From positions 1 to 50,494 of the forward strand of contig JAGCFX010000041.1 in NCBI GenBank assembly GCA_017649925.1: a stretch of 50,494 bases of DNA, in the 5' to 3' direction. The notes beneath the pieces were generated by a model. The model saw nothing but the letters and a program-made list of their open reading frames with translations. It was not told where the DNA came from and made no database searches. Shown piece after piece: positions 18,247 through 48,028 of the stretch. A program made the translations under genes and the position numbers. The number at the start of each line of letters is the position of its first letter. Position 1 is the first letter of the stretch. The DNA is from Paludibacteraceae bacterium (GTDB lineage: Bacteria > Bacteroidota > Bacteroidia > Bacteroidales > Paludibacteraceae).

Positions 18247-18313
18247 GTAACTTCGGACTCCGCCTTGGCCAGAAGCCAATTCCCCCGAAATTCCGTTCGC
18301 ACTTTCGTGCAAA
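18247..18313 (+). repeat. shared upstream element, copy 1 (yceD side)
   Basis: Begins GTAACTTCGG (18247-18256) and ends with a 28-base block from CCGAAATT (18285) to TGCAA, rich in TTCG/CGAA dyads. The same start and end blocks occur on the minus strand upstream of nusB (47944-48028). In both cases the element ends about 90 bp upstream of the -7 box. Confidence 0.6.
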
Positions 18314-18315
18314 CA

Positions 18316-18385
18316 GCAAGTTTTTTAGCAAGCAAAATCACGCTTAAACGAGCTTAGACTAAATTTTTTTTGCTAAAAAACTTGC
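18316..18385. promoter_or_regulatory. 16-bp inverted repeat overlapping the yceD -33 box
   Basis: GCAAGTTTTTTAGCAA (18316-18331) and its exact reverse complement (18370-18385) flank a 38-bp middle. The right arm contains the TTG of the -33 element (18382-18384). It could be a cruciform, a looping operator pair, or a terminator for the upstream VWA gene. Confidence 0.6.
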
Positions 18386-18412
18386 GTATTTGAAAAATTT
18401 GTAGTAATTTTG
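18382..18412 (+). promoter_or_regulatory. Bacteroidota promoter of yceD-rpmF
   Basis: TTG (18382-18384), a 20-bp spacer and TAATTTTG (18405-18412), followed by CAC. The 15 bases TTTGTAGTAATTTTG are identical in the nusB promoter. The leader is about 12 nt. Confidence 0.78.
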
Positions 18413-46832: not shown

Positions 46833-47786
46833 TCACTTTAAAGCTAATACTTTAAAAAACTTCCCCTCGTTCTTCATCTCCCGCAATATCTCTGTCAGGA
46901 TACCGTTAACGAACATATAGCTCTTGTCGCCCGAGTATTCCTTGGCTAACTCAATGTATTCGTTGAGCGAGATGGTCAGCGGTATCTGTTCAAAGCCCAC
47001 TATCTCCGCCAGCGCCGTCTCAACAATCACGCGGTCCATATAAGCGATACGGTCGGCTTCCCAGCCTTTCAGATGCTTGTTAATCAGCACCTCGAACTCA
47101 TCATGTCCTTCGATGGCTTTGTTCAGCAGGTCGGTCGCGAACTGCAACTCATCTTCGCTGTCGAACATCTCCAGCAGCGGTGTCTCCGGCGTGCTGTCTT
47201 CCGTGAAGCGCTTGATGGTCTTGATTACATAACTGAGTATCACGTCCGCATCTACTGTCCAGTTCGATTTGTCCAGCGTCACTTCCATCTCATCCAAAGC
47301 ATCGCTGAGGGACTCGCTGTTCACCAGCAAGTGCTGGTAAATCTGCCGCCAGATGCGCTTGTCGTCCTCGAATGTGCACTCCTCCGCCTCCATGTACTCT
47401 TTGTAGTACTTGCTCTCCATCAGTTGTTTGTAGATATCGCTCACGGCCACCATGCCGCTGTCCCAAACCAAATGCTGCTCCTGAATCCGACTTCGCAACG
47501 CACGGTTCTCGAATAGCTTCTGCGCCAAGCGGTTCTCCACGAATCGTCTGTTCGGCGTCCAGCCTGAGTGCGTCGCCCGCGCACGGCCGATCTGCTCCTC
47601 CTGCTGCTTCTGCGCATAGGCGGTCAACTCATTGGCAAAATCCAACAAGATGAAGTATAAATCATACGTGTCGGCAAAACTCTTACGCAACTCCTTACGG
47701 GCTTTGCCGGGAGTCTTATCCGAGTCTTTGTAATAGGCGAACAGCGTCTGGATAACACGCGTTCTTACCATCGTTCTGTTTATCAT
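46833..47786 (-). CDS. nusB: transcription antitermination factor NusB
   Basis: RNA-binding factor for rRNA antitermination with NusE/S10. The 317-aa protein has the long Bacteroidota form: an N-terminal RTRVIQTLFAYYKD block, a large helical insert, and the NusB fold at the C-terminus (DRVIVETALAEIVGFEQIPLTISLNEYIELAKEYS, FVNGILTEI). It is first in the long minus run, behind the promoter at 47847-47878, and is followed after 54 bp by yajC. Confidence 0.95.
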   Translation of the reverse strand: MINRTMVRTRVIQTLFAYYKDSDKTPGKARKELRKSFADTYDLYFILLDFANELTAYAQKQQEEQIGRARATHSGWTPNRRFVENRLAQKLFENRALRSRIQEQHLVWDSGMVAVSDIYKQLMESKYYKEYMEAEECTFEDDKRIWRQIYQHLLVNSESLSDALDEMEVTLDKSNWTVDADVILSYVIKTIKRFTEDSTPETPLLEMFDSEDELQFATDLLNKAIEGHDEFEVLINKHLKGWEADRIAYMDRVIVETALAEIVGFEQIPLTISLNEYIELAKEYSGDKSYMFVNGILTEILREMKNEGKFFKVLALK

Positions 47787-47846: not shown

Positions 47847-47878
47847 CAAAATTACTACAAAATAATCAATTGTGCAAA
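47847..47878 (-). promoter_or_regulatory. Bacteroidota promoter of nusB
   Basis: Minus-strand TTTG (complement of 47875-47878), a 20-bp spacer and TAATTTTG (complement of 47847-47854). The leader is about 50 nt. The 15 bases TTTGTAGTAATTTTG are shared with the yceD promoter. Confidence 0.76.
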
Positions 47879-47943
47879 TAATTAGGGCAAAAAAAATAAA
47901 ATTGCTTGCTTTTTTTATGACTTTTGGACTAATTAGGTGCCAG

Positions 47944-48028
47944 TTGCAGGATACTGCGACCGTAATTTCGGCGGGAAATAATCGTGCCCTTGTGGCTAAG
48001 AACCCGCTTGCGGGAGGGCCGAAGTTAC
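47944..48028 (-). repeat. shared upstream element, copy 2 (nusB side)
   Basis: Reading the minus strand, it starts GTAACTTCGG (11 of 11 with the preceding A as in copy 1) and ends CCGAAATTACGGTCGCAG...TGCAA (23 of 28 by eye against copy 1). The middle differs in length. Both copies end about 90 bp before the -7 box of the gene they point to. Confidence 0.6.

What the first reader, a model, noticed from the sequence alone, without database searches (positions are those of the whole stretch)
18247..18412. Promoter module of about 165-180 bp shared by the yceD-rpmF and nusB operons
By eye, the DNA upstream of yceD (18247-18412, plus) and of nusB (48028-47847, minus) shares the same parts in the same order: AGTAACTTCGG, then CCGAAATTnCGnTCGCA...TGCAA (23 of 28), AGCAAGC, a T8GC run, the -33 box, and an identical TTTGTAGTAATTTTG. 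The distance from element end to -7 box is close to 90 bp in both. The genes are 29 kb apart and not related, but both serve ribosome or rRNA production. This suggests a common regulator or structured upstream element for growth-linked genes, a system I do not know to be described in Bacteroidota.
Basis: seen in the sequence. Interest (0 to 1): 0.72.

Follow-up and report, generated by a model that had tools for sequence, protein, structure and literature searches.

The report
Mobile element that rebuilds gene promoters
The DNA shared in front of yceD and nusB is two copies of a small, hairpin-rich element, probably a jumping one, that seems to land inside the core of bacterial promoters and bring a replacement promoter half, so the gene behind it keeps a complete promoter.

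Summary
The shared block is real but is not a control module for growth genes. Both are copies of a dispersed element family (own genome: 8 copies by covariance model, plus one 5'-truncated; 45 of 61 sampled genomes of the genus, Paludibacteraceae gut/rumen MAGs; no Rfam match in the stretches scanned). Each copy sits inside a -7 box: native ..GTAnnTT | element (CGG..TTTGTW) | GTAnnTTTGC. Its right end supplies a new -33 TTG exactly 20 bp before the rebuilt TAnnTTTG (122 of 123 copies). The target's nn is duplicated (9 of 11 in the cleanest subfamily, 43 of 116 overall). In 25 of 30 yceD and 26 of 30 nusB orthologues examined no element was seen; downstream genes are unrelated in function, tRNA genes included. 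Covarying stems show selection for a folded strand. One arm (CGAAnnTAC) is complementary to the target box more often than shuffling predicts: a possible guide. No mobiliser was found: IS200-type, RAYT-like, reverse-transcriptase and IS110 proteins are missing from many carriers, and several carriers have only two integrases. Most likely a non-autonomous mobile element that spares its host by reconstituting the promoter it interrupts; mobility is inferred from comparison, not observed.

The parts
18247..18253 (+). left copy of the duplicated target, GTAACTT (5' half of stem 1; remnant of the native -7 box)
   Evidence: empty orthologues read ..AGC|AGTAnnTTTGC
18254..18403 (+). inserted element, yceD copy (150 bp, CGG..TTTGTA)
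   Evidence: (E 5.9e-20)
18265..18279 (+). apical hairpin TTGGC/GCCAA of stem 1 (variable domain)
18285..18294 (+). stem-1 3' arm CCGAAATTCC, the proposed guide arm (CGAAnnTAC in most copies)
18295..18314 (+). stem 2 GTTCGCAC..GTGCAAAC
18316..18331 (+). stem 3, 5' arm GCAAGTTTTTTAGCAA
18370..18385 (+). stem 3, 3' arm TTGCTAAAAAACTTGC; contains the new -33 TTG (18382-18384)
18404..18410 (+). right copy of the target, GTAATTT; with the next bases it is the rebuilt -7 box TAATTTTG (18405-18412)
48022..48028 (-). left copy of the target, GTAACTT, with a native-type -33 (CTTGTGTATTTG) upstream at 48052-48041
47856..48021 (-). inserted element, nusB copy (166 bp)
   Evidence: (E 9.1e-14)
47962..47971 (-). 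stem-1 3' arm CCGAAATTAC
47942..47961 (-). stem 2 GGTCGCAGTATCCTGCAACT
47875..47936 (-). stem 3 (CTAATTAG.. / ..CCTAATTATTTG) with the new -33 TTG in its 3' arm
47849..47855 (-). right copy of the target, GTAATTT; rebuilt -7 box TAATTTTG at 47854-47847
46833..47786 (-). nusB

Best explanation
The two blocks are copies of a non-autonomous mobile element, mostly 97-191 bp (median 143; long forms 229-380 bp). It inserts, in one orientation, into the -7 box GTAnnTT|TGC of Bacteroidota promoters and duplicates GTAnnTT. Its 3' end carries a -33 box and spacer that place a TTG 20 bp before the re-used TAnnTTTG, so insertion swaps the upstream half of the promoter for the element's own and the gene keeps a complete promoter; the old -33 then decays. 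Shown by comparison: dispersal, site, spacing, target duplication (imperfect), empty orthologous sites, nested insertion, covarying stems. Inferred: that the rebuilt promoter works, that movement uses the folded strand, and that the CGAAnnTAC arm helps choose the target. The mobilising enzyme is unknown.
For: Dispersed family: 8 in own genome; 45 of 61 genus genomes; 1 of 24 genomes of other families, marginal, E 0.07; 54 of 57 genome contigs stretches found by pattern were confirmed by the model, all labelled Paludibacteraceae or Bacteroidales. Site: 123 of 134 distinct copies end in TTTG[TG]WGTAnnTTTG, with TTG-N20-TA in 122 of 123; [GA]TAnnTTTG within 190 bp in 125 of 134 against 8% of random stretches of the loci; an ATG ORF of 60 aa or more follows within 220 bp on the same strand in 119 of 134, tRNA genes follow several copies. 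Empty sites: no element seen in 25 of 30 yceD and 26 of 30 nusB orthologues (by eye; by model). Target duplication: nn equal in 9 of 11 copies of the short subfamily (13 of 20000 shuffles reach this), the base before GTA equal in only 2 of 11; overall 43 of 116 against 19.2 (free) or 32.1 (within-genome) by shuffling, 0 of 5000 in both. Movement: near-identical copies at different places of one genome (L198/L203, L205/L206) and a copy inserted in another copy's -7 box (L120). Fold: 88.1% of cells paired, 168 cells changed on both sides against 50.6 shuffled and at most 42 slid; stem-3 arms fit their own partner better than others' (mean -7.8 against -3.7 kcal/mol, 0 of 10000 permutations).
Against: No transposition was observed and no mobilising enzyme found. 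The tips are not inverted repeats (1.04 of 10 positions match on average, maximum 4, 116 copies). Target duplication is imperfect: 73 of 116 copies have different nn at the two ends; the second n alone agrees in 57 of 116 against 52.5 on within-genome shuffling (489 of 5000 reach it); and the left copy has C at the second n in 92 of 116 against 44 of 116 on the right, which a plain duplication does not explain. Some near-identical pairs differ at the right box while the left agrees (L136/L113). Left -33-like boxes are seen in only 39 of 133 copies (21 of 393 background). One covariation measure is not exceptional (pairs with a change on both sides 12, shuffles 10.6, reached by 91 of 500), and in stem 3 the own partner is the best or tied best in only 15 of 94. 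The model was built from copies that share these features, so conservation of TTCG/CGAA is partly ascertainment.
Confidence: 0.8

Rival explanations
1. A conserved regulatory module (structured leader or operator) that co-regulates growth-linked genes.
For: Fixed geometry to the -7 box; conserved fold; two ribosome-related genes in the window.
Against: No element seen in 25 of 30 yceD and 26 of 30 nusB orthologues; of 29 downstream proteins scanned only YceD and NusB are plainly rRNA/ribosome factors; the rebuilt -7 box is at its downstream edge, so it would not be in the transcript; near-identical copies lie at unrelated places.
Confidence: 0.06
2. REP/REPIN-like palindromes spread by a Y1 (HUH) transposase of the IS200/RAYT kind.
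For: Hairpins, intergenic location, and RAYT-like proteins exist in the genus.
Against: No Y1_Tnp hit at E<=0.001 in own genome or in G004, which has 17 element matches; RAYT-like proteins in 30 of 45 carriers and 11 of 16 non-carriers (tallied by hand); target duplication is not expected of this enzyme class (recalled).
Confidence: 0.12
3. Integration by a tyrosine recombinase with a CTnDOT-like core (GTAnnTTTGC), possibly host XerC/XerD.
For: The target equals the CTnDOT core as I recall it; integrase-domain proteins are in all 16 genomes searched.
Against: G004, G033, G034, G035 and G073 carry elements but only two integrase-domain proteins, of 302-368 aa; both nn copies follow the target in sister copies, which strand exchange without repair does not give; the left end reads TTCG[GA], not TTTGC.
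Confidence: 0.1
4. Not transposition: promoter segments copied by homologous recombination or gene conversion between similar promoters.
For: Right ends are promoter-like and similar; apical and 3' halves are shuffled between copies (L139/L080).
Against: Native -33 boxes remain upstream at 18 or 20 bases in 9 of 11 copies of the short subfamily (read by eye) and comparison with empty sites shows a clean insertion point; flanks are unrelated.
Confidence: 0.08

Closest known systems
Correia elements, BrickBuilt and other bacterial MITEs with promoters (passages of PMC10969869, and PMC4596501)
   Same: small, non-coding, multi-copy, intergenic, carry promoter parts; short target duplications reported for some
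   Different: described with terminal inverted repeats and promoters of their own; this has no terminal inverted repeats, one orientation, and completes its promoter with the target's own -7 box
TnGBS / ISLre2 / ISKra4 Mutator-like elements (passages of PMC3942029)
   Same: insertion targeted at promoters, mostly oriented, presumed there to lower host cost
   Different: they insert 15-17 bp upstream of the -35; this one enters the -7 box and rebuilds it; no transposase or inverted repeats seen here
REP/REPIN with RAYT (search listings with abstract starts of PMC3116915, PMC3733652, PMC8266576)
   Same: short palindromic non-autonomous repeats in intergenic DNA
   Different: no association with RAYT-like genes; at a -7 box; target duplication
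CTnDOT and related Bacteroides conjugative transposons (core sequence recalled; one search found no paper holding the string)
   Same: target core GTAnnTTTGC, as recalled
   Different: no conjugation genes or integrase in the element; different left junction

Membership tests
MITE (DDE-derived) | terminal inverted repeats | tested here: not met
   left tip against reverse complement of right tip: mean 1.04 of 10, maximum 4, in 116 copies
MITE (DDE-derived) | target-site duplication | tested here: met
   GTAnnTT; 9 of 11 in the short subfamily, imperfect overall, 43 of 116
MITE (DDE-derived) | autonomous parent with the same ends | tested here: inconclusive
   none seen in the long or odd copies read; DDE families were not searched
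REP/REPIN | associated RAYT/Y1 transposase in the genome | tested here: not met
IS200/IS605-derived element | Y1 transposase available in carriers | tested here: not met
   own genome and G004, among others, lack PF01797 matches at E<=0.001
Retroelement (target-primed) | reverse transcriptase in carriers | tested here: not met
   RVT_1 in 1 of 12 carriers searched
IS110 with bridge RNA | IS110 transposase in carriers | tested here: not met
   PF02371 in 2 of 12 carriers searched
CTnDOT-type integration | dedicated integrase in carriers | tested here: not met
   only two PF00589 proteins in G004, G033, G034, G035, G073; taken to be XerC/XerD by size, not tested
Known RNA family | Rfam match | tested here: not met
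   0 gathering-level matches in the window and in 16 loci
Bacteroidota primary promoter | TAnnTTTG at -7 and TTTG near -33 (PMC7366714 passages) | tested here: met
   TTG-N20-TAnnTTTG in 122 of 134 copies
Bacteroidota primary promoter | transcription starts downstream of it | not testable with these tools
   no transcript data

The most novel reading that the evidence does not exclude
A self-sparing, guide-bearing mobile element: a folded single strand (ssDNA or RNA) whose arm CGAAnnTAC recognises -7 boxes by base pairing, inserted with target duplication by an enzyme of an undescribed kind or by a host enzyme. In an excised circle the right-end -33 and the left-end TAnnTTCG would form a promoter facing into the folded domain, which could transcribe the guide.
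Probability: 0.22. Interest if true: 0.87.

Novelty: new variant of a known kind. Interest (0 to 1): 0.64.

Why it matters
Promoters are normally damaged by insertions. An element that enters the -7 box of many kinds of gene, likely essential ones included (tRNA genes; topoisomerase IV; leuS and argS, named from sequence by eye), and hands the gene a replacement -33 would show how a parasite can use one of the commonest sites in a compact genome at low cost, and would be a natural way to rewire expression. If the arm is a guide it would be another nucleic-acid-directed insertion system, without any of the enzyme families searched here.

Tried and rejected
Rfam: no match. IS200/Y1, RAYT-like, reverse transcriptase, tyrosine integrase, IS110: no association or absent from many carriers. 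Viral contigs: the one pattern match (L276) is in an unrelated phage-like contig with a model score of 18 bits, E 0.006, judged chance. Three genome contigs pattern matches (L083, L099, L108) were not confirmed by the model. Long forms and odd copies were read for an internal gene: none seen. P1 as a working second promoter: not supported, a -33-like box is seen in only 39 of 133. Strand of the fold: inconclusive; wobble counts are 58 (top strand) against 93 (bottom strand), and turn to 53 against 13 only if the two nn columns and one conserved C.A column are left out; predicted energies favour the bottom strand in the six copies compared. The first nn statistics used a looser P2 rule that misread some boxes; one search replaces 43, 44 and 63. 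Of 150 model hits the weakest (L198:2003-2137) was left out and duplicates were merged to 134; 116 of 134 could be scored for all three nn. Of 32 randomly drawn downstream proteins 21 were scanned (and one in 87), besides the 8 of the own genome.

Full report
What the finding is. The two upstream blocks exist as described. Read together they share a hairpin whose arms are GTAACTTCGG and CCGAAnTTAC, a second abutting hairpin (GTTCGCAC..GTGCAAAC), a third long stem, and a promoter. The motif CCGAAATTnCGnTCGCA has two exact matches in the genome, these two copies. A DNA search with the yceD block gave 52 matches, most of them only the promoter part, the general promoter of this genome; a handful extend into the structured part.

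A repeat family. A covariance model of the structured part (five copies) finds 8 copies in the own genome at E<=3.2e-7, five of them the training copies; C87:6142-6243 keeps only the 3' half. In a sample of 61 genomes (own, 36 of the same genus, 24 of other families; no other genus of the same family was in it), carriers were the own genome, 25 of the 36 same-genus relatives, and one marginal match (E 0.07) among the 24. In a larger genus sample 45 of 61 genomes carry it, up to 16 matches at E<=0.01. A pattern scan of genome contigs gave 57 stretches; the model confirmed 54, all from records labelled Paludibacteraceae or Bacteroidales. One viral contigs match was judged chance. Rfam gave no match in the window or in 16 loci.

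Anatomy. I fetched flanks for the stronger matches listed and some weaker ones, not for all, and compared 134 distinct copies (150 hits less the weakest and duplicates). 123 of 134 end in TTTG[TG]WGTAnnTTTG, and in 122 of these 123 a TTG stands exactly 20 bases before the TA. That fits the -33/-7 arrangement of Bacteroidota promoters (PMC7366714, passages). The element between the boxes is 97-191 bp in most of 116 measured copies (median 143), 229-380 bp in ten (the 295-bp value of L120 spans a nested copy); it begins with CGG in 97 and CGA in 19. An ATG ORF of at least 60 aa begins within 220 bp in the same direction in 119 of 134 (median 33 bp); several copies precede tRNA-Pro, -Gly, -Gln or -Cys genes. 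The apical part of hairpin 1 is highly variable in sequence (at least seven types by eye) while pairing is largely kept.

Insertion site. Upstream of yceD, 25 of the 30 orthologues for which loci were returned (30 of 60 matches) show an ordinary promoter or at least no element by eye, e.g. TTTGCATATTTCAAAAAAAAGC-AGTACCTTTGCACCCGATTTTGCG-ATG; in own, G026 and G006 the element lies precisely between AGTAnnTT and TGCA, and G067 has a long form; these four match the model. G036 has a degenerate form seen by eye only. L235 has a weak model match, but more than 1 kb upstream. At nusB own is a clear match and G035 a weak one (E 0.03); two more show remnants by eye; 26 of 30 show none. In the short subfamily (11 copies) a native-type -33 stands upstream at 18 or 20 bases in 9 of 11 (read), the nn of left and right boxes agree in 9 of 11 while changing between copies (AC, CC, AA, AT), and the base before GTA agrees in only 2 of 11: a duplication of GTAnnTT but not of its neighbour. 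Over all copies nn agree in 43 of 116 against 19.2 expected on free and 32.1 on within-genome shuffling (0 of 5000 in each). Copies at least 90% similar to another copy agree in 15 of 31 (with the looser box rule). In L120 one copy sits inside the -7 box at the end of another. Together these point to oriented insertion of a mobile element at GTAnnTT|TGC.

Fold. On 86 distinct copies the three modelled helices have 88.1% paired cells; 168 cells changed on both sides against 50.6 in shuffles and at most 42 when slid; the number of pairs with such a change (12) is not exceptional (91 of 500 shuffles). The alignment was fitted to this structure, which favours it. Stem 3, not part of the model, was tested separately: the two arms of the same copy pair at -7.8 kcal/mol on average against -3.7 for arms of different copies (94 copies, 0 of 10000 permutations), though the own partner is best or tied best in only 15 of 94. 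Its 3' arm contains the new -33. Which strand folds is open. Three of the four long forms folded (L109, L121, L184) form one large hairpin beside the stem-1 part; L207 less so.

A possible guide. The 3' arm of hairpin 1, CGAAnnTAC, is complementary to the target box GTAnnTTTG (one G-U). Its nn fits the right-hand box in 51 of 116 copies against 21.5 (free) or 37.5 (within genome) by shuffling, 0 of 5000 each; it fits the left box in 19 of 116 (13.5 and 15.1 expected; reached by 232 and 411 of 5000). In the short subfamily the second n fits in 11 of 11 (168 of 20000 shuffles), both in 5 of 11. This could reflect target choice by pairing or shared ancestry; it is suggestive only.

What moves it. 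Y1/IS200 matches are absent from the own genome and from G004, which carries 17 element matches. RAYT-like proteins found on the way occur in 30 of 45 carriers and 11 of 16 non-carriers (tallied by hand). Reverse transcriptase: 1 of 12 carriers. IS110: 2 of 12. Integrases: G004, G033, G034, G035 and G073 have just two each, 302-368 aa, taken to be XerC/XerD by size. The DDE families were not searched. The mobiliser is therefore unknown.

Function and novelty. Of 29 downstream proteins scanned (8 of the own genome, 21 of 103 eligible others) only YceD and NusB are plainly ribosome-related, so the growth-gene reading fails. The nearest described things are MITEs that carry promoters (PMC10969869, PMC4596501; passages) and Mutator-like elements that insert just upstream of promoters (PMC3942029; passages). 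I found no description of an element that enters the -7 box and rebuilds it, in eight searches of an open-access library only; subscription papers are mostly missing. That GTAnnTTTGC is the CTnDOT integration core is recalled; one search found no paper holding that string.

Limits. Nearly all genomes are MAGs, repeats at contig ends may be missing, and counts depend on model thresholds. The left box has C at its second n in 92 of 116 copies against 44 of 116 on the right, and the second n alone agrees between the boxes in 57 of 116 against 52.5 within genomes (489 of 5000); simple duplication does not explain this.

Noticed in passing
L277:425-1585 (-), L280:1195-2370 (+), L279:296-1399 (-); matches in 41 of 61 genomes: RAYT-like proteins of 367-391 aa with a weak Y1_Tnp match and a long conserved C-terminal half without a Pfam match; up to 8 matches per genome.
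   Followed up: partly
L184, L207, L121, L109; L225 and L261 by eye: Long forms (318-380 bp in the four measured) with the same ends but a large, mostly self-complementary insert; no open reading frame seen inside.
   Followed up: partly
L143 upstream of 1001: Short direct repeat CTTGCAAAAATTTGTAGTAACTTCGGACGC before a copy, like repeated partial insertions.
   Followed up: no
left box of 116 copies: Second n of the left GTAnnTT is C in 92 of 116 but in 44 of 116 on the right; unexplained.
   Followed up: no
L139 and L080: Nearly identical 3' halves attached to different apical types: parts of the element seem to be exchanged between copies.
   Followed up: no
L132, L133, L197: Several copies precede AAA_14/DUF4143 ATPase genes (3 of 29 downstream proteins scanned).
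   Followed up: no
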